From positions 1 through 64,000 of the forward strand of contig DATKRS010000003.1 of NCBI GenBank assembly GCA_035532035.1: a DNA stretch of 64,000 nt, given 5' to 3'. The translations under genes and the position numbers were made by a program. Each line of letters begins with the position of its first letter. Position 1 is the stretch's first letter. Below, in pieces: positions 1 through 14,439 of this stretch. This DNA comes from Candidatus Dormiibacterota bacterium. GTDB taxonomy: Bacteria > Vulcanimicrobiota > Vulcanimicrobiia > Vulcanimicrobiales > Vulcanimicrobiaceae. Below the pieces are notes generated by a model. It had not been told where the DNA came from and made no database searches. It was given only the letters and a program-made list of their open reading frames with translations.

Positions 1-116
1 CGAGCGCGTTTTAAAGCCCACCATGCAGGCAGCGCCACTCATTGCGCGGCAAACGCTCCGCGCCCTTGGCGCGCGCGCTCGACGGTGTCGTTGCGAACCA
101 ATGCCTCATGGCGACG
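1..116. other. Unassigned left edge
   Basis: No gene can be supported here. The open frames crossing it are not convincing as proteins. The 9-mer GCGCCCTTG also occurs in the left arm of the palindromic repeat at 6499-6587, so this may be the rearranged left half of that repeat, but the match is too short to be sure. Confidence 0.3.
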
Positions 117-164
117 ATGGGATTCGTCGAGGGATACTACATAAGGGCGCTCTAACGTCCGGTT
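117..164. repeat. Half copy of a palindromic repeat
   Basis: Bases 117-148 match 6536-6567 at 31 of 32 positions, and the AACGTCCGGTT tail (154-164) matches 6573-6583. Only the loop and right arm of the full 89-base palindrome are recognisable. The two copies bracket the orphan Rhs modules, the IS3 element and the solo cas1 gene, so they may mark a region built up by transposition or recombination. Confidence 0.7.
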
Positions 165-298
165 CCGCGGGGGCGCGGGCTATATCGCCGCGCCGGGCAC
201 CCGCTGAGACCAATCGTCCAAGATCGCAAAGGTGTCTCCGCTTCCAGCTTCTTGAGCGCCCCGACGATCTGGGTCTCAGAAGACTTGGACCTCTTCAC
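152..298 (-). pseudogene. IS3-family orfA N-terminal remnant
   Basis: A 48-codon frame starts at a GTG with a good ribosome binding site (AAGGAG on the minus strand, at 307-312). Its first 20 residues begin MKRSKSSETQIVGALKK when GTG is read as Met. This is the characteristic start of the helix-turn-helix OrfA of one branch of IS3-family transposases. The similarity ends after about 20 residues and the frame runs through unrelated sequence to a stop, so only the 5' tip of an orfA is left. It differs from the OrfA of the intact element at 2189 and so came from another insertion sequence. Confidence 0.5.
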
Positions 299-364
299 GA
301 TGGGGTCTCCTTGGCCAGCCTCCCCCGATATCTCACAGTTTCAACGGGCGAAGATTTCCCGCCC

Positions 365-1222
365 TCAAGTCACCGTCCAGGAGCACACGGGTGTGTAGTG
401 CCCATGCAAGACTATGTGTGTCCCAACCGCCAGGATCCAATCCCCGTCCGTTAGCAAGGCGGGCCTGCCGCCACCCGTGATGCACGCGAGATCGCCGTGG
501 TACCAGTGCTTCCCTCCATCAAGCGAGTACGTGGGATCATCACCGCTGCTACCGTACCCCAAGAGTGCGGGGACAGATGAATCCTGAGCAACAACTCCGC
601 TCGCGCAGCCTATCCTCCGAACGGAGCCGCTATATAGTCTTAGGATGTAGGCTGCCGTAGGCTCAAGAAGCATTCTCGGCAAGCTACTGGAGCACGCGCT
701 GTCTCCATTGATGAATGCTACGGCATTGTCGCCGACGAAGGCGAGAGAAGAGGGGAGTGGGTTGTCTATGGCGCCAACCAGAGCAATCCTCACCAAGACC
801 TTCGGTGCGTGACTGAAATCAAACACGAGTAACTGTTCCTTCCCCTTGCCGGCAAGGAACTCGATGCAGGCTCCGCGGGACCCGTTCGGCGACAACGCCA
901 CATTCGGAACTTCGCAGTGATGCCCAAGCAAAACGGGCCCGCCACGATACGTAACCTGGCCCGATCTGTCATTAGTGGGAACCTCCAGGGTCGCAGCCGC
1001 GTTGCGGCGGGCAACCGTTACGAACCTGCCTGAGATAAAACCCATCCTGCGCCCGGCCACAACATATGTGCCAATGCGCGCGGGCTTGTCCTCGCCGCGG
1101 CGCTCAACGGCGTATGCATACAAAACGCCCGGCACGCCCGTGACGTATCCTTGCCGGTGCGACGCGGCGCACCCGCACTCGATTGCGGCAATAATTCCTA
1201 TTGCACAGAGCGGCGTCGCCAT
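365..1222 (-). CDS. Hypothetical secreted protein next to an Rhs module
   Basis: I do not recognise this 285-residue protein. The chosen ATG is followed by a short hydrophobic stretch rich in Ala, Ile and Cys that could be a secretion signal; an in-frame start further upstream at 1369 would overlap the preceding gene. Near the C-terminus is a BNR-like segment (YSLDGGKHWY), which hints at a beta-propeller blade, but no full repeat series is visible. It lies 109 bases downstream of the orphan Rhs C-terminal module and on the same strand, where an immunity gene would be expected. Its size and apparent export would be unusual for a cytoplasmic immunity protein, so an accessory or unrelated function is as likely. 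Confidence 0.5.
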   Translation of the reverse strand: MATPLCAIGIIAAIECGCAASHRQGYVTGVPGVLYAYAVERRGEDKPARIGTYVVAGRRMGFISGRFVTVARRNAAATLEVPTNDRSGQVTYRGGPVLLGHHCEVPNVALSPNGSRGACIEFLAGKGKEQLLVFDFSHAPKVLVRIALVGAIDNPLPSSLAFVGDNAVAFINGDSACSSSLPRMLLEPTAAYILRLYSGSVRRIGCASGVVAQDSSVPALLGYGSSGDDPTYSLDGGKHWYHGDLACITGGGRPALLTDGDWILAVGTHIVLHGHYTPVCSWTVT

Positions 1223-1331
1223 CCATCGCCCTGCATTCGTGGAATCCGGTGCCTGAGAATCCCGGGGTCGGCGACGCGAGACTTGAGGCTTTTGCCAAAC
1301 GGCACGCGGGGTTAGGAGCATACTGCGCCTT

Positions 1332-2110
1332 TCACAACTGCGAAGCATCGGTAAGGAGCGGCTGCGCATTGTCCTTACTCCCGCCGCCGTTGAACGGGTC
1401 GCCGTTGCCGAAGTAATTCTTTGACCCGCTCCCGTTGACTAGGGTTACTCGGGCATAGCTGTCTAGGGTTCCGCCCTCCGCACGCACGGAATGCTGAAAG
1501 TTCGACCAGCTTTTCCTTATGGTCCCGCTGTTCGGATTGATACCCTGAGATTCGTAGACCGACGTTGGAACCCCATGCTCAACGGCCCCAACGATTGCAA
1601 CATGATCTTCGTGACCGCCGAAGTTTACGAAGATTATGTCTCCTACGTGCATACCCCCGCCGGTGAATTGCCGCAGTTCATCGTGGATCGCGAAGTAATG
1701 GTGCATGTTCTCCGTGTCCAGATCGGGTTTGTTTGAGAACAGACCGTGCATGTTATAGCCGTTCATCTCAAAAACATGTTGCCAATAATCAGATACTATC
1801 AGTTCGTGGAGGTTAATATCGAGGGCCCCTTTGTAGGCGTCTTCCACGTACGTGCTGCACGACTCGAGAATCTGGTTCGGCTGCCCGGCCATCCAGGCCC
1901 CTATTTGGGTCTCCTGTGCCTGAGTCAGAAACCCCGTCGGGTCGCTGTACGCTTCTGGATTGTTCCCGTTCCACATATAGGACTTTTGGGACGCAGGGGC
2001 GTCAACGTTACCTGCGTAGGCGTCGGGGGTGGTCCACGTGCCGGTGCTCGAATCATACGTACGGGCGCCCTGAATGGAATCCGTTCCGTCGGTGTAACCG
2101 TAGAGGTGGC
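1332..2110 (-). pseudogene. Orphan Rhs C-terminal module, CHAP/NlpC-like toxin tip
   Basis: The frame covers the last part of an Rhs core (segment YGYTDGTDSIQGARTYD, then a YMWNGNNP...DPTG boundary) followed by a unique C-terminal domain of about 200 residues. That tip has a Cys in ESCSTYVEDAY, a GDIIFVNFGGHEDHVAIV segment with a candidate catalytic His, and the layout of a CHAP or NlpC/P60 cysteine amidase; the fold call is an inference. The core upstream of about 2110 is absent. The sequence runs into about 25 bases of unrelated DNA and then the IS3-family element, so there is no signal peptide or proper start. This looks like a displaced orphan toxin cassette that could act only after recombination with an intact core. 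The tip is less GC-rich than its surroundings, as is common for these modules. Confidence 0.7.
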
Positions 2111-2188
2111 CTCGGTTAATCGAACACCCCTCTAAGTGATGAATCCGCTCCGTCGAAGGCGAAAGAGCCTTCAGAAAAGGAGCAGATC

Positions 2189-2491
2189 TTGACACGACGC
2201 GCCCGCCGGAACCATTCTCCGGCATTTAAAGCAAAGGTGGCCATCGCCGCGATCCAGGGGACGCTGACGATCTCGGAGCTGGCGAAGCGGTTCGATATCC
2301 ATCCGAACCAGATTGCGCAATGGAAGACGCAGCTGCTCGAAAGCGCAGCTGCGGTTTTCGGCAGTACTGCGAAAGCCGACGAGAGCCCCGACCTTCAGGC
2401 ATTACACGCGAAGATCGGGCAGCTCGCGCTGGAGAACGATTTTTTAGAGAAGGCGCTCGGGCGCGTCGGCGGTCCGAGCGTACGGCGATGA
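2189..2491 (+). CDS. IS3-family transposase OrfA
   Basis: A 100-residue protein with an N-terminal helix-turn-helix (HSPAFKAKVAIAAIQG, then ISELAKRFDIHPNQIAQWK) and a C-terminal leucine-rich helix (ALHAKIGQLALENDFLEKAL) as in IS3 OrfA proteins. It binds the element ends and dimerises. The start is a TTG preceded by AGGAG at 2178-2182, six bases away. The heptamer T TTT TTA at 2440-2446 lies in the reading frame so that a -1 slip would join OrfA to the orfB frame, giving the OrfAB transposase. OrfA alone usually acts as a regulator in this family. Confidence 0.92.
   Translation: MTRRARRNHSPAFKAKVAIAAIQGTLTISELAKRFDIHPNQIAQWKTQLLESAAAVFGSTAKADESPDLQALHAKIGQLALENDFLEKALGRVGGPSVRR
2440..2446 (+). 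promoter_or_regulatory. Predicted -1 ribosomal frameshift heptamer
   Basis: The bases T TTT TTA sit in the zero frame as codons TTT and TTA, which is the canonical X XXY YYZ slippery arrangement. After a -1 slip, reading continues in the orfB frame, which is open from here to the orfB ATG at 2488 and on to 3318. IS3-family elements commonly make OrfAB by -1 frameshifting; the site itself is read directly from the sequence and its use is inferred. Confidence 0.7.
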
Positions 2492-3318
2492 TCGACCGCG
2501 AGCACGATCTGTCGCTGACGCGCCAAGCCGAAATCCTTCGCCTCTCCCGCGGCTCGCTGTACTACCAACCGAAACCCGTGTCGGCCGCCGATCTGGAGCT
2601 GATGCGCGAGATCGATCGGCTGCACTTGGACTACCCGTTCGCCGGGGCTCGGATGCTGCGCGATCTGCTCAAAGGCAAGGGCTACGCCCCCCTGGGACGT
2701 AGGCATGTCGCGCGGCTCATGCGCCTGATGGGCATCGAAGCGCTCTACCGCAAGCAACGGACCTCTAAGCGCAATCCCGAGCATCCGGTCTTCCCATACT
2801 TGCTGCGCAACCTCGTCATCGATCACCCGAACCACGTGTGGGCTGCGGACATCAGCTATATCCCGATGCGTCGCGGCTTCCTCTACCTGTTCGCCGTTCT
2901 CGATTGGGCGACGCGCCGCGTGCTCTCGTGGCGCCTCTCGAATACGCTCACGACGGATTTCTGCATCGAGGCGGTGCAAGAAGCGATCGCGACGTACGGC
3001 AAGCCCGAGATATTCAACACCGACCAAGGCAGCCAATTCACCGATCACGATTTCGTGCAGCTCATTCGCGAGGAGCATGGCATCGCGCTGAGCATGGATG
3101 GCAAAGGCTGCTGGCGCGACAACGTCTTCGTCGAGCGCTTCTGGCGCTCGCTCAAGTACGAGGAAGTCTACCTGCACGCATACGAGAGTACCTCGGAAGC
3201 TCGCCGCGCCATCGGCAAGTACATCGACTTCTACAGCGGCCTACGGCCGCACTCGTCGCTCGACGGGCGCACACCCGATGCCGTATACTTCACCACACCG
3301 GCCGCAGAGGCGGCCTAA
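2488..3318 (+). CDS. IS3-family transposase OrfB (DDE integrase domain)
   Basis: A 276-residue rve-type catalytic protein. An N-terminal HTH_21-like region (LDYPFAGARMLRDLLKGKGY) precedes the catalytic core with Asp in HVWAADISYI, Asp in FNTDQGSQF and Glu in NVFVERFWRSLKYEEVY, the DDE triad of the family, and the C-terminal YNSLRPH-like motif reads FYSGLRPHSSLDGRTP. The ATG overlaps the orfA stop as ATGA. The frame is also open upstream of this ATG, so the active form is probably the frameshifted OrfAB fusion. All key residues are present, so the element may still be mobile. Confidence 0.93.
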   Translation: MIDREHDLSLTRQAEILRLSRGSLYYQPKPVSAADLELMREIDRLHLDYPFAGARMLRDLLKGKGYAPLGRRHVARLMRLMGIEALYRKQRTSKRNPEHPVFPYLLRNLVIDHPNHVWAADISYIPMRRGFLYLFAVLDWATRRVLSWRLSNTLTTDFCIEAVQEAIATYGKPEIFNTDQGSQFTDHDFVQLIREEHGIALSMDGKGCWRDNVFVERFWRSLKYEEVYLHAYESTSEARRAIGKYIDFYSGLRPHSSLDGRTPDAVYFTTPAAEAA

Positions 3319-3426
3319 CCTGCGGAGTTATCACTTAACGAGAGGCTATCCGCCGTTCAAAAAACCGGCGCCACCTCTGTTCGGCGACTACTTCGTGGGA
3401 GCTATATCAGTTAAGGAGGTAGAATA

Positions 3427-4806
3427 ATGACCGATCCTAGCGTTCTTACCATCGAAGGCTACGATGCCAGGTTATACGTAGAACGCGGTCACATCGTTAT
3501 ACGCGACGGCTTTCCGAGCGAAGGGAAAGTTCGCGAGATTCGCTTCCCGCGTGGCCGCTGCGAGGTCAAGCGCATCGTCGTGCGCGCGCCGGGCGGCACG
3601 ATTTCCATGCCTGCTATCGACTGGTGCGCGCGCATGGGCATCGCGCTCTCGTTCGTCGCCTCCGATAGCACCCTGCTCAACTGTATGATCCCGGACCAGC
3701 CGTACGACGGGCCCGTGAAGCGTGCTCAGGCCGTGGCAGGCACGACAGACGATGCGTGGGGTCTCGCGCGCTATCTCCTTACGCGCAAGCTGGACTCGCA
3801 GGTTAGTGCGATAACCCACGATTTCGCACGCCTGGGCGTAGGCAGCGCGCAATCTCGCTCCGCATCGGTCAAGCAGATCGAATCCTGCAAGGCGTCACTC
3901 GCGACTGCTAAGACCTTGGACGATTTCCTGGTGCTGGAGGGCAACGCGGCGCAAGCGTACTGGGAACTGCTCACTGCCACGCCACTGCCTTGGCGCGAAT
4001 GGGCCTACAAACGCATTCCCGCGCATTGGGCGGCTATCTCGCCACGCGCGAGTGGTGGGCGGGGTCGCGTGCGCGACGCAACTGACGCCTTTAATGCGAC
4101 CCTCAACTACTGCTACACGCTGCTGGAGGTGGAAACGCGAATCGCTTGTGAGGCCGTGGGGCTCGACCCGGACTTAGGGCTGCTGCACGTGGACGCTCGA
4201 CTGCGCGAGTCTTTCATCTTCGACCTACTTGAACCGCTGCGTGCGAAGGCTGACGTTTGGACGCTGGAACTCCTGCGCAAAGAGAAGCTGCACCCCGCCA
4301 TGTTCCACGAGCTGCGCGCCGGGATCGTGCGGCTCGATCCCGATCTGACGGAACTCCTCGCGAAGAGCCTCATGCCGCGATTCGGCAAAGCGGCGCTAGA
4401 GATTGCGAACGACTATGCGAAGCAGCTGCGCCGGATCACTGTGCCGCTCAAGCTCTTCCGCGCGGCGCCGAAGCCAATCGCTCAGCGGCGCGAGGCTTGG
4501 GCGCAGTCAACGTGCGCGTATTGCAAGGAGCCACTGCCGCGCAAGGGCTTGAAGTTCTGCGGGCGGCCGTGCTACCTGAGCTACAGCGTCGAGATCGCGA
4601 GGCCCATCGAAAAGGCTCAAGCGCGGCTTGCTGAGATGCGCGCAGCGGGACTAAGTCCGGGGCACGGCGGCGAGGCGGCCAAGAAGCGCGGCGCAAAGCT
4701 AGCGGAGAGCAATCGCAGGCGGAGTCTCGGGCTTACTCCCGACGAAATGCGTGCCCGCAAAGCGATCCAGATGCAGGGTTACCGCGCCGCGCGACGGACG
4801 CCGTGA
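3427..4806 (+). CDS. cas1: Solo Cas1-family integrase with C-terminal zinc finger
   Basis: A 459-residue protein with the two-part Cas1 architecture. An N-terminal beta-rich domain (about 1-100; RFPRGRCEVKRIVVRAPGGTIS, then IDWCARMGIALSFV) is followed by the alpha-helical catalytic domain. The three catalytic motifs are intact: Glu171 in LEGNAAQAYW, His254 in GLLHVDARLRESF, and Asp266/Glu269 in FDLLEPLR, with the family signature FNATLNYCYTLLEVE between them. Residues 350-459 are extra: a Cys4 finger (C363, C366, C378, C382) and a very basic tail. Cas1 normally works with Cas2 to insert spacers into CRISPR arrays; neither Cas2, an effector gene nor an array is visible in this window. The start has a strong AAGGAGG seven bases upstream. 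The next gene begins inside the stop codon. The pair sits between an IS3 element and a truncated Rhs module, so it may belong to a mobile element or be a domesticated integrase. Confidence 0.85.
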   Translation: MTDPSVLTIEGYDARLYVERGHIVIRDGFPSEGKVREIRFPRGRCEVKRIVVRAPGGTISMPAIDWCARMGIALSFVASDSTLLNCMIPDQPYDGPVKRAQAVAGTTDDAWGLARYLLTRKLDSQVSAITHDFARLGVGSAQSRSASVKQIESCKASLATAKTLDDFLVLEGNAAQAYWELLTATPLPWREWAYKRIPAHWAAISPRASGGRGRVRDATDAFNATLNYCYTLLEVETRIACEAVGLDPDLGLLHVDARLRESFIFDLLEPLRAKADVWTLELLRKEKLHPAMFHELRAGIVRLDPDLTELLAKSLMPRFGKAALEIANDYAKQLRRITVPLKLFRAAPKPIAQRREAWAQSTCAYCKEPLPRKGLKFCGRPCYLSYSVEIARPIEKAQARLAEMRAAGLSPGHGGEAAKKRGAKLAESNRRRSLGLTPDEMRARKAIQMQGYRAARRTP

Positions 4807-4997
4807 GCCTTCGCTATCGACCGTGGTTCGTGGTGTTCTGGCTAGCCTATGCGGTGTACTTGACCGGGCGGGCAATCTACACATGGCGCTCGTACCGTCC
4901 GGATGCGCTACACTTCTCGAATTCGCTAGGCATCATCTTCGGTCTCCTCGCCGGCGTGCTCAGTATCGCCTACCTGACGCGACGCCCGAAACAATAA
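4803..4997 (+). CDS. Small membrane protein coupled to solo cas1
   Basis: A 64-residue protein with two predicted membrane helices (about residues 8-26, WFVVFWLAYAVYLTGRAIY, and 42-58, LGIIFGLLAGVLSIAYL) and a short polar loop between them. It starts at a GTG that overlaps the cas1 stop as GTGA, so it should be translated together with cas1. I recognise no family. The coupling is the main reason to take it as a real gene and as a possible partner of the Cas1-like protein. Its stop lies about 12 bases before Rhs-derived sequence begins. Confidence 0.6.
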   Translation: MSLRYRPWFVVFWLAYAVYLTGRAIYTWRSYRPDALHFSNSLGIIFGLLAGVLSIAYLTRRPKQ

Positions 4998-5001
4998 TGG
5001 T

Positions 5002-6087
5002 TTGGGGGGGCAGCTTGACGATATCAAGATCGGTGCCCAGGGCGACATTCTGCCGCTTGACCCCAAGTACAAGGGCCTGACGTTTTACGACCGCGATCCA
5101 GGAGGTGGCGCGATGGGTTGTCATAACGCTACGGGCGCGACCTACATCGGTCCGAGTGAAACATACGCACGCACGACGACCGGCAAGATCCGGTCAGTCA
5201 CGTACGCTGTGTCACCGTGTTCGACTAACACGCGGTTCGCGCACGTTACCGGAACACCATCCATGCCTACTTCCGTCATGTGGTGGAGCAGCCCGTCGGC
5301 TGGGGTGGGCTTTCCATCGGGTGTAGGCGCAGGTAGCGTGCTCGGCATGCCCCGCACCGATGGTTACGCCGACGGAACAGATTCCATTCAGGGCGCCCGT
5401 ACGTATGATTCGAGCACCGGCACGTGGACGACGCCCGATGCGTATGCTGGCGACGCTAACGATCCCGCATCACAGAAGTCGTACATGTGGAACAGCAACA
5501 GCCCGGTGCAGTACTCTGATCCGACCGGCTTTGATAGCCTCTGGATTGGATATTCGGTCGCGTTTGCTACCGCGCTCATCATCCCGGTCCAGGGAATTCC
5601 TACCGTCGTTGTAACCGTAGTTGCGTGGCACGCCTACGCTGTGCTTGAAAACGATAACGGCAACATCGTGAAGACGTATTCCTATGGGCCCAGCGGAACG
5701 CGACCACCACGTCTCAATAATCACTATGACGATGACCAGACGCTGCGAAACGCGGAGCAAGCGAAAAGGAGCAACGCCCTAACGGAAGTTGGGAGTTGTC
5801 ACGGTCAATGTGCGTGGGAAAGACCTCTGAACGACTACTACAATAAGTGGCCAAACAACAAGGTGCCATACGACATTGTCTTCAATAATTCTAATAGCGC
5901 ACTGTCCGCAAACCTGAACGCGGCGGGATTCAACTCGCAAGCCCCTCCGGGCGCGCCGGGCTGGGTACCAGGCTGGAACGTCCCGATTCACGGGCTTAAC
6001 GGGAGCCTCTTTACTCAAGCCCTGCTCGAAGAGAGCGAGGGACTGGGCGGCAGCGCCGATCAGGAGCAGCGTGCGATTGGGTTTTGA
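5002..6087 (+). pseudogene. Orphan Rhs C-terminal module 2
   Basis: From about 5009 the sequence is almost the same as the end of the core of the full-length rhs gene (QLDDIKIGAQGD... through YMWNSNSPVQYSDPTG), for about 510 bases. After the DPTG boundary it changes to a unique 190-residue tip. The tip has a hydrophobic stretch (FATALIIPVQGIPTVVVTVV), a WHAYAVLENDNG segment and NNSNSALSANLNAAGF...PGWVPGW. This resembles His-then-Cys peptidase-fold domains with a typical NNCN motif, except that Ser replaces the Cys; the resemblance is tentative. The core has no 5' end because the cas1 region abuts it, so the module has no real start or export signal and lies opposite to the full-length rhs gene. 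Confidence 0.7.
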
Positions 6088-6117
6088 GTTACGCAGCAAT
6101 TGTGACGGAGGCACGAT

Positions 6118-6477
6118 ATGAAGAGGGCGATGAGGCTGGCTCTGCTTTCGCTGCCCGGTATCGCCGCAGCCTTCGGCTTTGGGGACGGTCTATACTTGTT
6201 CAGCTACAGTCCCTTTAAATGGGAATCCGCACTACAACTGAATCAGCTGGAGCTGTTCGACATGCTGACCCTCGTGCTAATGTGGCCACTGGGATTGCTG
6301 CTTACCGGATGGATAACGATCCCCGCGACCGTTTTGCTGTACGGCAGGTTGCGGCTCCTGGCAAAGCATGTCTGTCAGGGATGGAACTTGCTATGGTCGC
6401 TGCCCACCCACTTCGTCTTCGGTTTCATTTTGGGAGTGGCGCTTACGGTTCTGGGGATCAGGCTTCCGGCGATATAG
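6118..6477 (+). CDS. Membrane protein, possible immunity for Rhs module 2
   Basis: A 119-residue protein with three or four hydrophobic segments: an N-terminal one (LALLSLPGIAAAFGFG), one at about 49-75 (MLTLVLMWPLGLLLTGWITI) and one at the C-terminus (FVFGFILGVALTVLGI). It begins 30 bases after the stop of the orphan Rhs tip, on the same strand, which is the usual place for a cognate immunity gene. A membrane-borne immunity protein would fit a toxin with a hydrophobic entry segment. The function is inferred from position only; no family is recognised. Confidence 0.55.
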   Translation: MKRAMRLALLSLPGIAAAFGFGDGLYLFSYSPFKWESALQLNQLELFDMLTLVLMWPLGLLLTGWITIPATVLLYGRLRLLAKHVCQGWNLLWSLPTHFVFGFILGVALTVLGIRLPAI

Positions 6478-6498
6478 AAGCCATGCGCCCCGCGCCCC

Positions 6499-6587
6499 CG
6501 AAACCGGACGTTTGCGCGCCCTTGTGTAGTATCCCATGGGATTCGTCGACGGATACTACATAAGGGCTCCCAAACGTCCGGTTTTCG
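6499..6587. repeat. Nested palindromic repeat, full copy
   Basis: The outer arms CGAAACCGGACGTTTG (6499-6514) and CAAACGTCCGGTTTTCG (6571-6587) pair with a single extra base. The inner arms 6518-6534 and 6551-6567 pair at 16 of 17 positions, leaving a 16-base loop. The whole 89-base unit can form a long cruciform or RNA hairpin. A second, half copy is at 117-164. It could be a small non-autonomous transposable element or a REP-like repeat. The rest of 6478-6700 shows no gene. Confidence 0.75.
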
Positions 6588-6700
6588 CGAATGTCGCTTC
6601 GCGGCTGGGCTCAGGTCGGCGAAATGAAATGCCGCTGCCTATTCTTATCTCAGCGCCGCATCATAGAGCCTCCAGGAAGACGAGCAGTTCTGAAACGTGT

Positions 6701-7090
6701 TCAGCTTTCCCATCTCTTAAACGCTTCGAGCTCTGCGCGTCCTCTAGGCCCTAGGAGTTCGTCGAGAGCGAGCCCGGCAAGTTTTGGGCTCGCGAGCGGC
6801 TGGATGACCTCCAAGACGAAAACATCCTGTGAACGCGAATCGCCTTCTGCCAGCACTTTTTCGGTAAGTCGAAACAGCGACTGTAGGCGTTTCGTCGTGC
6901 CGTGGTCAGGGCGTCCCTTCGTCAGCGTGTCCTGTAGCGGACCCATGATCTGGCCAAGAATGACATAACTTGGCACTAGGTCCGGGTAGTCTGCCAGTTC
7001 TCGGTCGACCATCGCCACTGAGTCCGGGAGATAATCCTTGATTAGCTGAGGTATGTCGTCGTAGCGAATCACACTTACCAACAGTGACAC
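6701..7090 (-). CDS. Probable immunity protein for the full-length Rhs toxin
   Basis: A 129-residue, soluble, mostly helical protein (QLIKDYLPDSVAMVDRELADYP; VFVLEVIQPLASPKLAGLALDELLG). Its GTG start overlaps the last base of the rhs stop codon (TAGTG), so the two are translationally coupled. Polymorphic toxin genes are normally followed directly by their immunity gene, so this assignment rests on position and coupling. The ordered helical pattern resembles immunity or SMI/DUF-type helical proteins, but I cannot name the family with confidence. Confidence 0.65.
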   Translation of the reverse strand: MSLLVSVIRYDDIPQLIKDYLPDSVAMVDRELADYPDLVPSYVILGQIMGPLQDTLTKGRPDHGTTKRLQSLFRLTEKVLAEGDSRSQDVFVLEVIQPLASPKLAGLALDELLGPRGRAELEAFKRWES

Positions 7091-10000
7091 TACTTCGGTG
7101 GCGGCGCTGGCTTAGGCTCGGGCGCGACCGGCGGTGGAACGTTGTTCCTGATAAAGCTGTTCGGGTCGTACCTACCGTAGGCCTGCTGCAAGTCTTTCAG
7201 CAGGCTATTCGCGGCCGCGCGCTCCGCTTGCGTTAACGCACCGCTCTTTCCGGAAAGTATATTTTGCAATGTACGGATCAAGATCGCTCCTTTTTCTAGG
7301 TGGAACTTTCCTCCTACCTGCCTGCCGTTTGCGAGCTCGGAACGCACCGCGTTAGCGGTCCCACCCGGTGTCCTGTCGCTCTCTTGGAACAGTTGCCGGG
7401 CGACGTTGCGAAGAGCCGTGCTCGTATTTGCCTGGCTCTTGGCAAAGTCCGCCGCTGTTTCCGCCGTGCGCGTAAGTTCCGAAGCTTGTTCGATTGCCGT
7501 TGCAGCGCGAGCATCTCCGCTAAGTTCGGCGCCTAGCTCGATGCCTTCCTCGATCGCCGCCCCGCCCTCCTCAACGATCTCTACGATGCATTCAGGACAG
7601 TAGCCGCTTGGGTCCGAAAACTGGACTGGGTTATTTCCGTTCCACATATACGACTTCTGCGATGCTGGATCGCTAACATTGCCGGCGTAAACATCGGGCG
7701 TCGTCCACGTTCCAACGTTGGGGTCGTACGTACGTGTACCCTGAATACTGTCCGTGCCGTCGGCATAGCCATCGGTGCGCGGCATGCCGAGCACACCGCC
7801 AGCGCCTATGCCTGGCGCAAAGCCGAGGCTGCTCGTCGGGCTGCTCCACCACATGACGGAAGTAGGCATGGATGGTGTTCCGGTAACGTGCGCGAACCGC
7901 GTGTTAGTCGAACACGGTGACACAGCGTACGTGACTGACCCGATCTTGCCGGTCGTCGTCCGCGAGTACGTCTCGCTCGGCCCGATGTAGGTTGCGCCCG
8001 TGGCATTGTGACAGCCCATTGCGCCGCCGCTCGGATCGCGGTCGTAAAATGTGAGGCCCTTGTACTTGGGATCGCGCGGCAGAATGTCGCCCTGCGCACC
8101 GATCTTGATATCATCAAGCTGCCCGGAGCTGTTCGTCGTAAACAGCAACACGTCGCCGTCCCAGTGCAGCGTGTCGCGCTGCGTGGAACTAATACCCACC
8201 ATGATGGGATGCCCATTCGGGCCCCAGGCAACCGTGTTCGAAAGCAACTGCGAATTGCACTGAAAGTCGGGATAGTCGGCGGAGGTCGTTATCGTGTGAT
8301 TCTCCGCATCGTAGGAACGGCCGGCACTTGAACCGCAACCGGTGCCGGTGCTGCTCTGCCACGAAGTCAGCCTTCCAGCAGCGTCGAACGCTTTGCCGAA
8401 AGAGCCCGTCGCGGCACTTTCGGTCTGCGTCGCGACGGCCATGCGGTCATCCCACGTGACGTAACCATAGTAGTCCTGGTGTACTTGCGCGCCGTCCGCA
8501 TACCAGACTGGGAAGGGGCTATTGATGCCGAACTGTTGCGTCGGCCAACGCGTTAGCTCACCGCGTGCGTTATACGAGTATGTCGCGCTCCCGCCCAGCG
8601 GGGCAGTCGGCCCGGTAAAGCCAAGCATCTCATTTTCCGCGCTGTACTCCATAGAAGAGAGCGCTGCACCCGGAGTTGTATTCGTGATCTCGTTGCCGTT
8701 CGTGTCGTACGTGAATCTCGTCGGCGTGCTATTGGCCGCGGCGCCGGACTCGGCTCGCTGCGTCAAGCGGCCCGCGGCCGTGTACGTGTACGATACTGTT
8801 GTGGTTCCGGGGTTCACAATCCCCGGAACGCTCGCGTCATTGACTGCTTGCGTTTGAATTCGGCCATCCGTGCGGTAGGAGTACGCGAAGAGTCCGCTCT
8901 GGCTAAGCGCCGAGGAGCTGACGTCGAGGCCCTCTTCTTTGCCATCGGCGTAATAGTGATGGGTGAGCAACGCAGGCGAAGTAACCCCTCCGCCGCCGGG
9001 GTCTTGGCTCGTGCTGAGCCTGCCGTCCGCATCGTACGTGTAACTCTGCGTTCCAAACGTTGAGGACGTGGCCGACGTGAGGCGGCCGTCCGGATCGTAG
9101 GCCATCGTGCGGCTTGGGGTCGAGTCGCTGAAGGTCAGTGAAGACTCGGAGCCGCGTGCATCGTAACTGAAGGTTTGGCACTGGCTGAGCGCGTTGCAGT
9201 CTTGCGCGAGCAGCCCAAGCGTCGTCGGCGCGCTGTCGTAGGTGAGGGTCTCGGTATTCACGGTGTCCGGACCCGGCGTGCTCTGCGGTGCGACGAACGA
9301 GTATTTTGCGGTCGGGCGATCCAGGGCGTCGAACGCGGTTCCTTTTGTATCCTGGTAGGCGGTATTGGCAACCGGCGTGGGTGAGGGCTCGGGAGTCGCA
9401 GGGAGGTACCCGCGCGTAGCCGAGTACGTTGTGCCCGAAGGCAGTAGCTCTACCGTCTTAAAGAGGTTGCCGTGCGCGCTGTAGTTCGTTCCTCCGTAGT
9501 TGAAGCTCACGTGCCCATTCTGCGACAGATCGTAGAAATAGCGCGTGATCCACGGATTGGTGTACGTATCGCTCGTTGCATCGTACGGCTGCTCGACCTC
9601 GACGAGTCGGTCATCGGCGTCGTAGAACTTGTACGTGATCCCTTGCGCCGTCGGCAGAGTTGGCGCAGAGTTCGACACCCACGTTCCGCCATGCACCGCG
9701 GTCTGCGTGAGCCTATCGCCATCGGCATCGTAGGAGAACGCAGTCGCGTAGATGCCGGGCGGCGTAGCATGGCAAGTTGATGAGCCACCGTCACGGGCGC
9801 GCTGGTAGGAGGTTTCGCTGTAGTGCGTGCTGCCGTCGGCGTAGTAGCAGATATACGAGTAGACGCCGTCTGGGTCTTCGCGCGTCAGTACCCGGTTCAG
9901 GGTGTCATAGGTGAGATGCCACGTGCCGTTGCCGGGATTGTACGTCTGAAGGTTGCCGTACGCGTCGTAGGTGAAACTCTGCGTCGGCGTGCGCTGGGTG

Positions 10001-11961
10001 CTGTCCGCTTGCGTGATCGTATCGCCCACGACCGAGAGCGGCATGCCGTTGCTATCGTACGCGAGATGGTGATGGTAGCCCAGTGGCGTGTAGGTATCGC
10101 TCAGCTCACCATAAATCTCAGGCGCTGAGCCCGTTGCCCAGACGTAGTGCACGACGCCGCTCGGACTGCCCGTGCAGGGATCGCTGCCGCCCGGATAGTC
10201 GCCGTTGTGCTGATGCACCCAATTCGGATCGCAGTAGTAGAGGAGATTGCTGTACTGGTCGTACTGGTACCACGCGGTCGGCTGGAACGTGCCCATCGAG
10301 GTCGTGACCGAGGGCTGCGCCTCCATGATCGCGTTGCCGTTGCCGTCGTACGCGAAGGTCGTCACGTTGCCACGCTCGTCCGTGAACGTGAGCAGGTTGT
10401 CGTTGCCATCCCAAGTTTGATAACTCACGAGCCACTGTGACCCGGTCCATTCCTGCGTCTCGGTCACGCGCCACAGGCTATCGGCGGTCCACATGCGCGA
10501 ATGCCCGTCCGAGTCACTCACCGTCGTGACGCCGGAACCGTACCCCGAGAAACTCTCCGTGTACCACGTCTGCAGGCCGGTCGGGACCGGCGATGGCTGC
10601 AACGGTCGCTGCGAGGGATCGGGTAGGGTCGGGCTCACGCCATCTTGAGGGATAAAGTTCACCACGCCGTAGTCCGTCATCGATGTCGCGCGCCTGCTGG
10701 CATCGAATGCGAGGTTGACGGTATCGCCTTCTTGAGCTACACCGCCGTTATTTCGCTGGCTCACGGTGTAGCGCGGCGAGTTTGCCGTCGCGAGCAGGTA
10801 GCCGGAGCCGTACGTGTACGTCTCAGGGGTGCACGCCGTATTCGTACTACTGCACGTTGGCGCCGAGATGGTCGCATTTCCGGGGCGATCTACTTCGAGA
10901 AGGTCGCCACCGCTGTCGTACTCGTAGGAGACCGTTGCGCCGTCCGGGCGGGAAATCGACTGCAGCTCGTCCGGGCCTGTCCCATTGAGCAAGCCGAACG
11001 TGAGCGTCAACGACTGCCCGTCGCTGTGCTGCACGACGATCTGCGTAAGGTTTTCGGGATTGCTTGCGTCGCCGTTGACCCACGAATACGTGAAGGTTAG
11101 GGCGTTGTTGATGTTGCGGCCTTGAATCGCAAGAATGCGCCCTGCTAACCCCGCCGGAATCTGCGTTCCACACGTCGATGGCTGGTTCGGCGCCTCGAAA
11201 TAGTAGGCCGTGCCGGTCTTCTTCGTCCAGTAGTAACCGCAGGAACCGTCGCTGGTGAGTTGCGCATACTGGCCGGAAGGGGGCGTCCAACTGCCCTGGC
11301 CGTTGCTCGTGTAGTCGTACCGTGCACCGTCGATGTCGTAGACCTGGATGATGTTGTCGGCTGAGTCATAGGCGAGGTGCGCGTCGAACGTGTTCGTCCA
11401 ACCGTTGCCGAAGACCGAGGGCGTACTTCCGTCACTGTTGTTCGCGTCATGCCCGCTCTGAGAGTTATAGCTGCGGCGAAACGCGAGGTCGATGCCGCGC
11501 TCCGGGATGTCGAGGTCGTTGACTTGCACGAGCGTGTTGCCATTGCCAACATTCACCATCGCCTTACCGATGCCGGGTAGCGGCTCTTCCTCGTACGTCC
11601 AGTAATGATTGATGCCGGTCGTCGGCGGAGGCGGATCGGCTAGCGGGGTTAGCGCGGCGCCAGTCCGTCGCGTCGCCATCGGATCGCGAGGTGCCGTGCG
11701 CGGACGAACCGGCCGCGGGCGGTGAAGGCCGGGAACAGGTGCGGGTTTCCCTCGTCGCTTCACGAGGCGGGCCTGACCCGAGCGGCTCGCGTTCGGAGGA
11801 CGTAGCACTGGGATGACCCGAGGAATCGCAGGCGGGGGAGCGTGCATCGCAACTTCGCGCGACGTGCGAGGACTTGCTCCCGCCCTAGCTGCAGTCGCCG
11901 AGACTTCCGCCAACTGCGCGACGATAGCAATGACCAGAGCCCAGGGAACCACACGCCGCAT
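7090..11961 (-). CDS. Rhs-repeat polymorphic toxin, full length
   Basis: A 1,623-residue protein. A Sec-type signal (residues 1-29, MRRVVPWALVIAIVAQ...) is followed by a Pro/Arg-rich linker, a DUF6531-like start of the shell (LDIPERGIDLAFRRSYNS), and many YD repeats (for example YDADGRL, YSYNARGELTRW, YDPDGRLTSA) that should form the hollow Rhs shell. The core ends at a YMWNGNNPVQFSDPSGY boundary. A tip of about 160 residues follows, with a helical part and a GGTANAVRSELANGRQVGG...HLEKG region; I do not know its activity, though a nuclease-like role is plausible. The ATG was chosen because AGGAGG lies eight bases upstream; a TTG seven codons earlier is less likely. Together with the downstream gene it makes a toxin/immunity pair used in contact- or secretion-dependent competition. 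Confidence 0.88.
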   Translation of the reverse strand: MRRVVPWALVIAIVAQLAEVSATAARAGASPRTSREVAMHAPPPAIPRVIPVLRPPNASRSGQARLVKRRGKPAPVPGLHRPRPVRPRTAPRDPMATRRTGAALTPLADPPPPTTGINHYWTYEEEPLPGIGKAMVNVGNGNTLVQVNDLDIPERGIDLAFRRSYNSQSGHDANNSDGSTPSVFGNGWTNTFDAHLAYDSADNIIQVYDIDGARYDYTSNGQGSWTPPSGQYAQLTSDGSCGYYWTKKTGTAYYFEAPNQPSTCGTQIPAGLAGRILAIQGRNINNALTFTYSWVNGDASNPENLTQIVVQHSDGQSLTLTFGLLNGTGPDELQSISRPDGATVSYEYDSGGDLLEVDRPGNATISAPTCSSTNTACTPETYTYGSGYLLATANSPRYTVSQRNNGGVAQEGDTVNLAFDASRRATSMTDYGVVNFIPQDGVSPTLPDPSQRPLQPSPVPTGLQTWYTESFSGYGSGVTTVSDSDGHSRMWTADSLWRVTETQEWTGSQWLVSYQTWDGNDNLLTFTDERGNVTTFAYDGNGNAIMEAQPSVTTSMGTFQPTAWYQYDQYSNLLYYCDPNWVHQHNGDYPGGSDPCTGSPSGVVHYVWATGSAPEIYGELSDTYTPLGYHHHLAYDSNGMPLSVVGDTITQADSTQRTPTQSFTYDAYGNLQTYNPGNGTWHLTYDTLNRVLTREDPDGVYSYICYYADGSTHYSETSYQRARDGGSSTCHATPPGIYATAFSYDADGDRLTQTAVHGGTWVSNSAPTLPTAQGITYKFYDADDRLVEVEQPYDATSDTYTNPWITRYFYDLSQNGHVSFNYGGTNYSAHGNLFKTVELLPSGTTYSATRGYLPATPEPSPTPVANTAYQDTKGTAFDALDRPTAKYSFVAPQSTPGPDTVNTETLTYDSAPTTLGLLAQDCNALSQCQTFSYDARGSESSLTFSDSTPSRTMAYDPDGRLTSATSSTFGTQSYTYDADGRLSTSQDPGGGGVTSPALLTHHYYADGKEEGLDVSSSALSQSGLFAYSYRTDGRIQTQAVNDASVPGIVNPGTTTVSYTYTAAGRLTQRAESGAAANSTPTRFTYDTNGNEITNTTPGAALSSMEYSAENEMLGFTGPTAPLGGSATYSYNARGELTRWPTQQFGINSPFPVWYADGAQVHQDYYGYVTWDDRMAVATQTESAATGSFGKAFDAAGRLTSWQSSTGTGCGSSAGRSYDAENHTITTSADYPDFQCNSQLLSNTVAWGPNGHPIMVGISSTQRDTLHWDGDVLLFTTNSSGQLDDIKIGAQGDILPRDPKYKGLTFYDRDPSGGAMGCHNATGATYIGPSETYSRTTTGKIGSVTYAVSPCSTNTRFAHVTGTPSMPTSVMWWSSPTSSLGFAPGIGAGGVLGMPRTDGYADGTDSIQGTRTYDPNVGTWTTPDVYAGNVSDPASQKSYMWNGNNPVQFSDPSGYCPECIVEIVEEGGAAIEEGIELGAELSGDARAATAIEQASELTRTAETAADFAKSQANTSTALRNVARQLFQESDRTPGGTANAVRSELANGRQVGGKFHLEKGAILIRTLQNILSGKSGALTQAERAAANSLLKDLQQAYGRYDPNSFIRNNVPPPVAPEPKPAPPPK

Positions 11962-12063
11962 GGAAGAGCCCTCCTGGCCCAAGCGTACTACCGTTTGCCG
12001 TTGAGAACAAGGCTTAAGCCCGAGCCGCGCGGCCTACTAGCAGCCATCGCGCCTTGCGTCTTA

Positions 12064-12252
12064 GCCTCGCGGGTAGAGCATCTCTTCCACGTCGTTAAGC
12101 GTATTATTAGCTTCGCAAACGTTCGCGACCGCGGCATCGTTCAGAAGGCTCATCGACTGGTCGTCAACTTCGCGCTCGGCGACCTGTATTCGCACCGACG
12201 AAGGCTCTTGGCATCGGGCTCACGGCGGCTCTCCTTGCCGGTCTCTCTGTAG
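12064..12252 (+). pseudogene. IS5-type transposase C-terminal remnant
   Basis: The translated segment SRVEHLFHVVKRIISFANV followed by RDRGIVQKAHRLVVNFALGD and a closing LYSHRRRLL matches the well-known C-terminal end of IS5-family DDE transposases (consensus like RVEHPFRVIKR, KVRYRGLAKN, FALANLY, RR.L). Nothing upstream in the frame looks like the rest of the enzyme, so only the last 60 codons remain. It lies in the 388-base gap between the rhs start and the fliJ-like gene, which is otherwise without features, and marks the right end of the accessory island. Confidence 0.7.
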
Positions 12253-12334
12253 GACAATCACAGCTCCGCTGGCCACTTTCCCAGCGCACGCCACAAGGGC
12301 GGGTGGCCTCCCCCTAGTCGCTCGCCGTAGACGC

Positions 12335-12541
12335 GTGACGAGCCGAACGATGGGTGAACGGCGCTTCAGCCTCGAGCCGCTGCTCGAGGTGCGCAGAAAG
12401 ATCGAGGAGGAACGCCGCCGCGCCTTCCTGCACGCCGCCGCGGAGCTGCAGGCCGCCGCTCGGGAGCGCGCCGTGCTCGAGAAGCTGGAGCTGCGCCGGC
12501 GCGAGGCTTGGCTCGCGCGCGAGCGAAGGCCGGAAATGTAA
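12335..12541 (+). CDS. Short FliJ-like coiled-coil protein
   Basis: A 68-residue protein (63 if the ATG at 12350 is the start) whose N-terminus reads RFSLEPLLEVRRKIEEERRR, the typical opening of FliJ, a coiled-coil chaperone and ATPase stalk of the flagellar export apparatus. FliJ is usually about 145 residues, so this is either a truncated copy or a short relative that keeps only the first helix. The whole protein is predicted to be one charged helix. The stop is directly followed by the trpE ATG. A FliO-like gene at 14450 and a che operon at 15872 support a flagellar origin. Confidence 0.45.
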   Translation: MTSRTMGERRFSLEPLLEVRRKIEEERRRAFLHAAAELQAAARERAVLEKLELRRREAWLARERRPEM

Positions 12542-13870
12542 ATGCACTCACTCGTGCGGCGCGTCCCCGCCGACGTCTTCACGCCGATCGGCGCGTATCT
12601 CGCGCTCGTCCGCAACGGACCCGCGTGCCTGCTCGAATCGGTCGAGCACGGCGGGCGCATCTCGCGCTACTCGTTCCTCGGCGTCGATTATCTCGACGCG
12701 CGCGCGTTCGAAGGCGGCACCGCGCTCTTCGACGAGATACGCGCGTGGATCGCGCCGCATCACATCGCCGCCGGGGATGGCGCGCTCGGCGGAGCGCTCG
12801 TCGCGTTCTCGTACGACGCGGCGCGGCCATTCGCGCACCTGGCAGACCGCGTTCAAGACGTGCCTCGCATGCCGGCAGCCTACGTCGCGATCCCCGCCAG
12901 CTGGCTCATCTTCGATCACTTCACCGACACGCTCTCGATCTGGAGCTGCGGCGCCGACGCCGGCGCGGTCGAACGCCGAATCGACGGGTACGTCGACCGC
13001 CTGCAGCGCTCTATGCCGTCGCTGCCCGGCGACGTTCGCGCCGCCGGCGCGGTCTGCCAAAGCATCGAGCGCGATCGTTACCTGGCGCTCGTCGATGCCG
13101 TCAAGAAGCACGTCTACGATGGTGACGTCTATCAACTCCAGCTCGGGATTCGCTTCGGCACGGCGTTGGAGGGCGACGCGCTCGATCTCTACCGTGCCCT
13201 GCGGCGGCGCAACGCGTCGCCGTATATGTTCTACGTCGACGCGCCGTTTGGGACGCTTCTCGGCGCGAGCCCGGAGTTTCTCGTTCGCCTCGAAGGGCAT
13301 CGCGCACGCATTCGCCCGCTCGCGGGCACGCGGCCGCGTGGCGAAAACGACGATGACGACGCGCGGATCGCACAGGAGCTATTGAGCAACGAGAAGGAGC
13401 GCGCCGAGCACGTCATGCTCGTCGACCTTGGGCGTAACGATCTCGGCTCGGTATGCGACGTTGGCAGCATCGACGTCGACGAGCTTCTCCAGGTGGAGCG
13501 CTACAGTCACGTGATGCACATCGTCTCCGACGTCATCGGCAGGCTGCGCTCTGGCTGCGATGCGCTCGACCTCTTTCGGGCCGGCTTTCCCGCCGGCACG
13601 GTCACGGGAACGCCCAAGATGCGCGCGATGCAGATCATCGACGAACTCGAGCCGGTGACGCGCGGCTTCTACGCCGGAAGTGTCGGCCGCTGGAGCTACG
13701 GCGGCGATTTCGATTCGTGCATCACGCTGCGCAGCGTGCACGTGCACGGCGGACGCGCGTGGTGGCAAGCCTCCGCGGGCATCGTGGCCGACAGCGATCC
13801 GGCTGCCGAGTACGACGAGATCCTCGGGAAGACGCGCATCGTCCGTGAGGTCCTCGGAGTGGACGCATGA
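12542..13870 (+). CDS. trpE: Anthranilate synthase component I
   Basis: A 442-residue chorismate-binding enzyme that makes anthranilate from chorismate with ammonia supplied by TrpG, the first step of tryptophan synthesis. The N-terminal segment LLESVEHGGRISRYSF (30-45) is the LLES region that binds feedback tryptophan in TrpE. The chorismate domain carries GASPEFLVRLEG, RPLAGTRPRG and PAGTVTGTPKMRAMQIIDEL. The Ala in PLAGT (261), where aminodeoxychorismate synthases have a Lys (PIKGT), argues for TrpE over PabB. The gene overlaps trpG by four bases (ATGA). Confidence 0.88.
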   Translation: MHSLVRRVPADVFTPIGAYLALVRNGPACLLESVEHGGRISRYSFLGVDYLDARAFEGGTALFDEIRAWIAPHHIAAGDGALGGALVAFSYDAARPFAHLADRVQDVPRMPAAYVAIPASWLIFDHFTDTLSIWSCGADAGAVERRIDGYVDRLQRSMPSLPGDVRAAGAVCQSIERDRYLALVDAVKKHVYDGDVYQLQLGIRFGTALEGDALDLYRALRRRNASPYMFYVDAPFGTLLGASPEFLVRLEGHRARIRPLAGTRPRGENDDDDARIAQELLSNEKERAEHVMLVDLGRNDLGSVCDVGSIDVDELLQVERYSHVMHIVSDVIGRLRSGCDALDLFRAGFPAGTVTGTPKMRAMQIIDELEPVTRGFYAGSVGRWSYGGDFDSCITLRSVHVHGGRAWWQASAGIVADSDPAAEYDEILGKTRIVREVLGVDA

Positions 13871-14439
13871 AGGTCCTCTACGTCGACCACTACGACTCAT
13901 TCGCGTACAACGTCGTGCATTTGCTGGCGTCGCAGGGGGCGAACCTCGACGTCGTGCGCAGCGATGACGCGCGTCTCGCGCCTAAGCTGCTCGAGCGGTA
14001 CGAGGCGCTCGTGATCGGTCCGGGTCCGGGCCATCCGCGCGAGGTTCCGCGGGTCCTCTCCGCGATTGCAGCCGCCGTCGAAAGCGGGATGCCCGTGCTG
14101 GGCGTGTGCTTGGGGTTACAGGCGATCGGGGAGGTGCTCGGCGCGCGGATCGAGCATGCTCCACGCCTCATGCACGGCAAGACGTCGCGCATCGAGCATA
14201 CGGGGACCGGCGTCTTCAAAGACCTGCCCTCGCCGCTGATTGCAACGCGGTATCATTCGCTCGCGCTCGATCCCGAATCGCTTCCGGCGGAACTCACCGT
14301 CACGGCGCGCAGCGAAGACGGCGTCATCCAGGGTATCGCGCACCGGGAACGTCCCGTGCATGCCGTGCAGTTTCACCCCGAGTCGGTGCTGAGCGAGCAC
14401 GGCGCTCGCCTCGCGCACAACTTTCTCGAAGGAATCTAG
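13867..14439 (+). CDS. trpG: Anthranilate synthase component II (glutamine amidotransferase)
   Basis: A 190-residue class I glutamine amidotransferase that hydrolyses glutamine and passes ammonia to TrpE. It has the oxyanion segment GPGPGHPRE (51-59), the nucleophile Cys81 in GVCLGLQAIGE, and the His/Glu pair in AVQFHPES near residue 168. The ATG overlaps the trpE stop. Such subunits often also serve PabB, so a dual role in folate synthesis is possible. No other trp genes are near. Confidence 0.9.
   Translation: MKVLYVDHYDSFAYNVVHLLASQGANLDVVRSDDARLAPKLLERYEALVIGPGPGHPREVPRVLSAIAAAVESGMPVLGVCLGLQAIGEVLGARIEHAPRLMHGKTSRIEHTGTGVFKDLPSPLIATRYHSLALDPESLPAELTVTARSEDGVIQGIAHRERPVHAVQFHPESVLSEHGARLAHNFLEGI

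What the first reader, a model, noticed from the sequence alone, without database searches (positions are those of the whole stretch)
3427..4997. Stand-alone Cas1 with zinc finger, coupled to a tiny membrane protein
All Cas1 catalytic residues are intact (E171, H254, D266/E269), yet no Cas2, effector gene or repeat array is seen within 64 kb. The protein has an added Cys4 finger and a strongly basic tail, and its stop overlaps the GTG of a two-helix, 64-residue membrane protein. It is neither a typical CRISPR adaptation module nor a clear casposon, which would carry a polymerase and terminal repeats. An integrase linked to a membrane partner is unusual and could be a new defence, competence or mobile-element system.
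Basis: partly seen in the sequence, partly recalled or inferred. Interest (0 to 1): 0.93.

Follow-up and report, generated by a model that had tools for sequence, protein, structure and literature searches.

The report
PolB-less casposon in Eremiobacterota
The lone Cas1 gene is the integrase of a casposon, a mobile DNA element that is kin to the machinery CRISPR uses to store spacers; this copy has lost its DNA polymerase gene but keeps its two ends and its insertion scar, and it belongs to a little-known group of such elements in one bacterial phylum.

Summary
The Cas1 gene is real, intact and the only Cas1 in the 2.25-Mb genome. The interpretation changes. It lies inside a 6.4-kb element (131-6535) with 48-nt terminal inverted repeats and a perfect 14-bp target-site duplication (117-130 and 6536-6549), the signature of a casposon. 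The 17-base end motif occurs three times in the genome, all here.

In related Eremiobacterota genomes the same Cas1 (50-82% identical, same Cys4 finger) sits beside a family B DNA polymerase, an HNH-like protein and an HTH-like protein, between the same kind of ends. In G019 and G050, deleting element plus one duplication rejoins a 408/431-residue gene. In six genomes that gene is cut at the same codons, and the window's left flank matches the same spot. A tree puts the window Cas1 inside this casposon clade (99/99).

The window copy lacks PolB, HNH and HTH; an IS3 element sits where they should be, so it is a casposon derivative, not an autonomous casposon. The membrane gene is not a partner: 2 of 149 genomes carry it. 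New: a casposon group in a phylum where I found none reported, with mid-gene target, defence cargo and core-less derivatives. Mobility is inferred, not shown.

The parts
81..131 (+). piece of the target gene (DGVVANQCLMATMGFVE), left flank of the insertion; the contig begins at base 1
   Evidence: tblastn of the rejoined target protein to the window; junction read directly
117..130 (.). left target-site duplication ATGGGATTCGTCGA (14 bp)
131..178 (+). left terminal inverted repeat, GGGATACTACATAAGGGC...CGTCCGGTT
   Evidence: 85% complementary to 6488-6535, 19 of the outer 20 bases; motif found 3x in the genome, all in this window
365..1369 (-). 334-aa ORF, no Pfam match, inside the element
1332..2225 (-). 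ORF with an RHS C-terminal piece and a weak NlpC/P60 or CHAP-like end; its RHS part stops at about 2099
2102..3378 (+). IS3-family insertion sequence (orfA 2189-2491, orfB about 2320-3318; inverted repeats 2102-2125 / 3355-3378), where relatives have geneD, HTH, HNH and PolB
   Evidence: right end at 3378 supported by a second partial copy ending there
3413..3419 (+). ribosome-binding site AAGGAGG of cas1
   Evidence: read directly
3427..4806 (+). cas1 (casposase), 459 aa, catalytic E171/H254/D266/E269, Cys4 motif C363-C382, basic tail
4803..4997 (+). 64-codon ORF, reads as a two-helix membrane protein; genus-specific passenger
5008..6087 (+). RHS C-terminal piece fused to a unique end (captured RHS tip)
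   Evidence: 83% identical to 7602-8124 of the RHS gene
6118..6477 (+). 119-aa hydrophobic ORF, possible immunity protein of the RHS tip (inference from position)
6488..6535 (-). right terminal inverted repeat
6536..6549 (.). right target-site duplication ATGGGATTCGTCGA
6550..6584 (+). third terminal-repeat copy directly after the duplication: left end of a second, decayed tandem element
   Evidence: the same arrangement between the two G019 elements

Best explanation
The window holds a casposon derivative. Its Cas1 is a casposase: it recognises the element's inverted ends and joins them to a preferred target made of an upstream stretch plus a 14-bp segment, which is copied on insertion. Complete relatives carry Cas1, family B DNA polymerase, an HNH-like and an HTH-like protein plus cargo, often defence genes. 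Most insert site-specifically into the middle of a conserved gene coding for ..VVANQCLMA(S/T)xGFA... The window copy kept both ends, the duplication and an intact cas1, but lost the PolB-HNH-HTH-geneD block, probably by an IS3 insertion and adjacent deletion, and holds pieces of a neighbouring RHS gene. Steps shown by sequence: ends, duplication, empty sites in two relatives, kinship, absence of the block. Inferred: catalysis as in archaeal casposases, the Cys4 finger and basic tail as DNA-binding parts, IS3 as cause of the deletion, and whether this copy can still move (alone, with host polymerase, or not at all).
For: Ends and 14-bp duplication. The same ends in G019 (two tandem elements, three copies of the duplication), G050, G031 and G076, a variant end in G010, and single ends in G003/G048 remnants. 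Empty sites rejoin a 408/431-aa ORF whose intact homologue is common in the phylum. Orthologous Cas1 genes lie beside PolB in 14 loci and beside Cas2 in none; CRISPR-type Cas1 in reference and phylum loci shows the opposite. PolB by motifs and profiles, HNH. Best solved match is the M. mazei casposase 6opm. Tree: window inside clade A, 99/99. dN 0.13 against dS 2.1 with the closest relative. Archaeal casposases make 14-15 bp duplications in vitro (PMC6614799, PMC6977970).
Against: No PolB in the element and only a C-terminal PolB remnant, of the other type, elsewhere in the genome, so the full casposon definition is not met. The contig starts at base 1, so the left half of the target gene cannot be seen; only about 17 codons match. 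No strain with an empty site for this very insertion was found. The third end copy at 6550 shows a tandem, partly decayed array, so the interior may have been rearranged after insertion.
Confidence: 0.91

Rival explanations
1. Dead relic (a version of the best explanation): the element inserted as a full casposon, then lost its core; nothing here moves now and cas1 is simply not yet decayed.
For: PolB, HNH, HTH and geneD absent; IS3 and RHS fragments inside; a decayed tandem end at 6550; many Cas1 fragments in sister genomes.
Against: cas1 is intact with a good ribosome-binding site, catalytic residues and low dN/dS in pairwise comparison, though this also reflects the other lineage; the outer 20 bases of the two ends still match 19/20.
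Confidence: 0.5
2. Mobile PolB-less element (a version of the best explanation): Cas1 alone moves the end-flanked segment, with gaps filled by host polymerase or PolB in trans, so RHS tips travel as cargo.
For: A 4-kb element in G031 without Cas1 or PolB sits between proper ends and a 14-bp duplication in the same target gene, so core-less elements do insert or persist; archaeal casposase alone integrates end-bearing DNA in vitro (PMC6614799).
Against: No second copy of the window element in the genome; RHS also lies near the same host genes in G003, so the tips may come from a resident neighbour.
Confidence: 0.35
3. CRISPR adaptation gene left over from a lost CRISPR-Cas locus.
For: Cas1 profiles for CRISPR subtypes match at 1e-38 and weaker.
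Against: Relatives never lie beside Cas2; the tree places it with casposases; it has casposon ends.
Confidence: 0.02
4. Two-gene defence or competence system of Cas1 plus membrane protein.
For: Overlapping stop and start, suggesting joint translation.
Against: Membrane ORF in 2 of 149 genomes, the second in a casposon remnant of the same genus.
Confidence: 0.03

Closest known systems
Bacterial family 3 casposons (Krupovic et al. 2014, PMC4046053)
   Same: Cas1 with a zinc-binding domain fused to it (in AceAut-C1 at the C-terminus), PolB, HNH and HTH genes in complete relatives, inverted ends, target duplication of about 15 bp.
   Different: Window copy lacks PolB, HNH and HTH. Elements of this phylum mostly insert inside a gene body. 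No family 3 sequences were on hand, so branching with them was not tested.
Methanosarcina mazei casposase and its casposon (PMC6977970, PDB 6opm)
   Same: Closest solved structure by sequence; E162/H232/E247 active site there, E171/H254/E269 here; 14-15 bp duplications; tandem insertions known.
   Different: C-terminal HTH domain there, Cys4 finger plus basic tail here; tRNA target there, protein-coding target here.
Thaumarchaeal family 1 casposons (PMC6563490)
   Same: Tandem insertion into a protein-coding gene (ef-2), OLD-family nuclease cargo.
   Different: Protein-primed PolB and compact Cas1 there; target is the 3' end of an essential gene there, the middle of a gene here.

Membership tests
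Casposon (autonomous) | Cas1 with intact active site, outside any CRISPR-Cas locus | tested here: met
Casposon (autonomous) | terminal inverted repeats | tested here: met
   131-178 / 6488-6535
Casposon (autonomous) | target-site duplication of about 15 bp | tested here: met
   14 bp at 117-130 / 6536-6549
Casposon (autonomous) | family B DNA polymerase gene in the element | tested here: not met
   absent from the window copy; only a remnant elsewhere in the genome; present in 14 related loci
Casposon (autonomous) | Cas1 branches with casposases rather than with a CRISPR subtype | tested here: met
   window in casposon clade A at 99/99; grouping with the M. mazei casposase 94/88, moderate and with long branches
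Casposon (autonomous) | integration or excision activity | not testable with these tools
   needs biochemistry
Casposon family 3 (bacterial) | Cas1 and PolB branch with the published family 3 sequences | not tested
   reference sequences not on hand
CRISPR-Cas adaptation module | cas2 next to cas1 and a repeat array | tested here: not met
   no Cas2 beside the window cas1 or beside any close relative; it is the only Cas1 in the genome; the direct-repeat families shown for 1-14000 do not form an array

The most novel reading that the evidence does not exclude
Casposons of Eremiobacterota form a phylum-wide vehicle for defence genes and RHS toxin cassettes, with Cas1-only and Cas1-less derivatives moved into one preferred codon stretch of a conserved gene, so that PolB is dispensable for movement and the gene serves as a CRISPR-like insertion array.
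Probability: 0.2. Interest if true: 0.78.

Novelty: new variant of a known kind. Interest (0 to 1): 0.58.

Why it matters
Casposons are the proposed ancestors of CRISPR adaptation, and very few bacterial ones have been described (four in the 2014 paper). Here one phylum offers complete elements, tandem arrays, precise empty sites, core-less derivatives and a Cas1 with a zinc finger in place of the HTH domain. Repeated insertion at one site, each time beside a copied 14-bp segment, resembles a CRISPR array and makes the transposon-to-CRISPR scenario testable in bacteria.

Tried and rejected
CRISPR remnant (rejected by tree and neighbourhood). Membrane partner (rejected). Structure predictions of Cas1 and PolB were too poor to use (mean pLDDT 47 and 30), so no fold search was run. 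IMG/VR scan with the Cas1 profile found no relative; with PolB only two weak ones. Plasmids and phages gave only distant Cas1 below 60% identity, CRISPR-type where annotated. A search for exact ends and duplications around the type-B Cas1 loci and L151 in the fetched stretches found none; their ends remain undefined. The right end of the second tandem element after 6550 was not found. No paper joining casposons with Eremiobacterota was found; the library is open-access only.

Full report
What is there. The Cas1 ORF at 3427-4806 is intact, 459 aa, with Pfam Cas_Cas1 at 9e-37, and it is the only Cas1 in the 2.25-Mb genome. E171, H254, D266 and E269 are invariant in ten aligned sequences, and so are C363, C366 and C378 of the added Cys4 motif. 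A 64-codon ORF overlaps its stop.

Ends. A 48-nt inverted pair lies at 131-178 and 6488-6535, and a perfect 14-bp direct repeat ATGGGATTCGTCGA lies just outside at 117-130 and 6536-6549. The motif GGATACTACATAAGGGC, with two mismatches allowed, occurs three times in the whole genome, all in this window: the two ends and a third copy at 6550, directly after the right duplication. A scan for this arrangement around cas1 gave this single hit in 20 kb and none in 60 shuffles. The shuffle was by two-base blocks, so it is a rough control.

Relatives. A search of 60 related genomes and a contig scan found Cas1 orthologues with the same finger at 50-82% identity; two records are named Candidatus Eremiobacterota. 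Over 149 genomes of the phylum, 16 hold a match of 374 bits or more, and others hold fragments. Beside the orthologues lies a conserved divergent block: a protein of about 165-205 aa with an HTH-like start, one of about 150-220 aa with an HNH-like core, and one of about 960-1040 aa. The last shows the family B polymerase motifs FDTET, DFTSMYP, NSAYG and CDTDS; 5 of 7 members match PHROG DNA polymerases (best 5.8e-14) and Pfam DNA_pol_B_2 (best 1.5e-4). So complete relatives carry the gene set that Krupovic et al. give for casposon families 2 and 3 (PMC4046053).

Neighbourhood test. In the loci examined, strong matches lie near PolB in 14 loci and never near Cas2; weak, CRISPR-type matches lie near Cas2 in 12 of 14 and never near PolB. 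The window is a strong match without PolB. Of the three other full-length strong matches without PolB, two (L152, L154) lie near contig ends; L157 was not followed further, and L032 holds decayed fragments.

Insertion sites. G019 holds two tandem elements with three copies of ATGGGTTTCGCAGA; G050 one element with CTTGGGTTCGCAGA; G031 one with GAGAATCTTCTTGC in another gene's end. G010 has a variant end GGGATAGGAGACAGAGCG and duplication CTCGGCTTTTCGTC. Every duplication defined here is 14 bp. Joining the flanks of G019 and G050 rejoins an ORF of 408 and 431 aa. This target protein has no Pfam or PDB match; the DHGGG and NQC motifs recall C11/caspase-like peptidases, from memory only. Matches occur in 112 of 149 genomes. 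The gene is cut at the same codons in G006, G010, G019, G031, G050 and G076, and the window's left flank reads DGVVANQCLMATMGFVE up to the end. In the window genome another, uncut copy lies on contig C11.

Derivatives. G031 also carries a 4-kb element in the target gene with proper ends and duplication but no Cas1 or PolB. Core-less elements of this group therefore exist between proper ends; insertion by Cas1 in trans is the likely route, loss of the core after insertion the alternative.

Tree. With 34 Cas1 rows the window lies in clade A (99/99), nearest to L022 of the same genus; clades A and B join at 100/99; the M. mazei casposase joins them at 94/88, a moderate support with long branches. 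By profile the best solved relative is that casposase, 6opm (1.7e-37; CRISPR Cas1 of A. fulgidus 4.3e-34).

How the window copy came about. IS3 (2102-3378) ends 48 bp before cas1, where relatives have geneD and the PolB block; on its other side an RHS piece stops at about 2099. An IS3 insertion with adjacent deletion explains this; it is inference. RHS pieces inside the element match the RHS gene at 7090-11982 and nothing else in the genome. G003 has RHS sequence 8.6 kb from the same host genes, so RHS may be a resident neighbour and not old cargo.

Mechanism. Archaeal casposases integrate end-bearing DNA with 14-15 bp duplications and need sequence upstream of the duplicated segment (PMC6614799, PMC6977970). 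The conserved upstream codons and the 14-bp length here fit this. The M. mazei enzyme needs its HTH domain; the finger and basic tail may do that job here, untested.

Cargo. Complete relatives carry genes matching known defence proteins: a SIR2-HerA pair in L023, OLD-like ATPases in L025 and L026, a GmrSD/NsnA-like nuclease in L022.

Membrane ORF. It has one relative in 149 genomes, in a G003 remnant beside Cas1 fragments with the same border at 5007. It is a passenger of this genus.

Verdict. A casposon derivative of a bacterial casposon group that I found described nowhere in the open-access library. The autonomous definition is not met because PolB is absent. Whether it still moves is open.

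Noticed in passing
L083 1885-5897 (G031:C6): A 4-kb element with casposon ends and 14-bp duplication but no Cas1 or PolB, in the shared target gene; a complete casposon lies elsewhere in that genome.
   Followed up: partly
L084/L085 (G047:C18 about 189.9-290.0 kb): The same target gene is split about ten codons further on, at ASPET, by about 100 kb without a casposon-type Cas1 match; G048 is split at the same place on two contigs. Another kind of element may use this gene.
   Followed up: no
L034 4227 and 11085 (G048:C57): Tandem array with duplication CTTGCTTTTGCCGA in which a different inverted end (GGGTTAATAAGGAGTGGGGC) faces itself across the duplication: a mosaic of two element types.
   Followed up: partly
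L052 1414-2604 (G000:C9): C-terminal half of a PolB of the other casposon type, starting at motif C: remnant of a second casposon in the window's genome.
   Followed up: partly
L022 2940-3584 and relatives: The HNH-like protein of the casposon block ends in what looks like two membrane helices in several relatives.
   Followed up: no
L045 14292-14470 and L027 12700-12790 (G031): The element ends carry repeated copies of AAACGTCCGGT at short spacing just inside the terminal repeat, possible binding sites.
   Followed up: no
window 7090-11982, 1332-2225, 5008-6087: RHS gene with two detached RHS tips in opposite orientation; the search found no other matching RHS DNA in this genome.
   Followed up: partly
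window 12067-12207 and 12219-12295: Short stretches left of the conserved host genes recur several times in sister genomes (G003, G001, G007); unidentified dispersed repeats.
   Followed up: no
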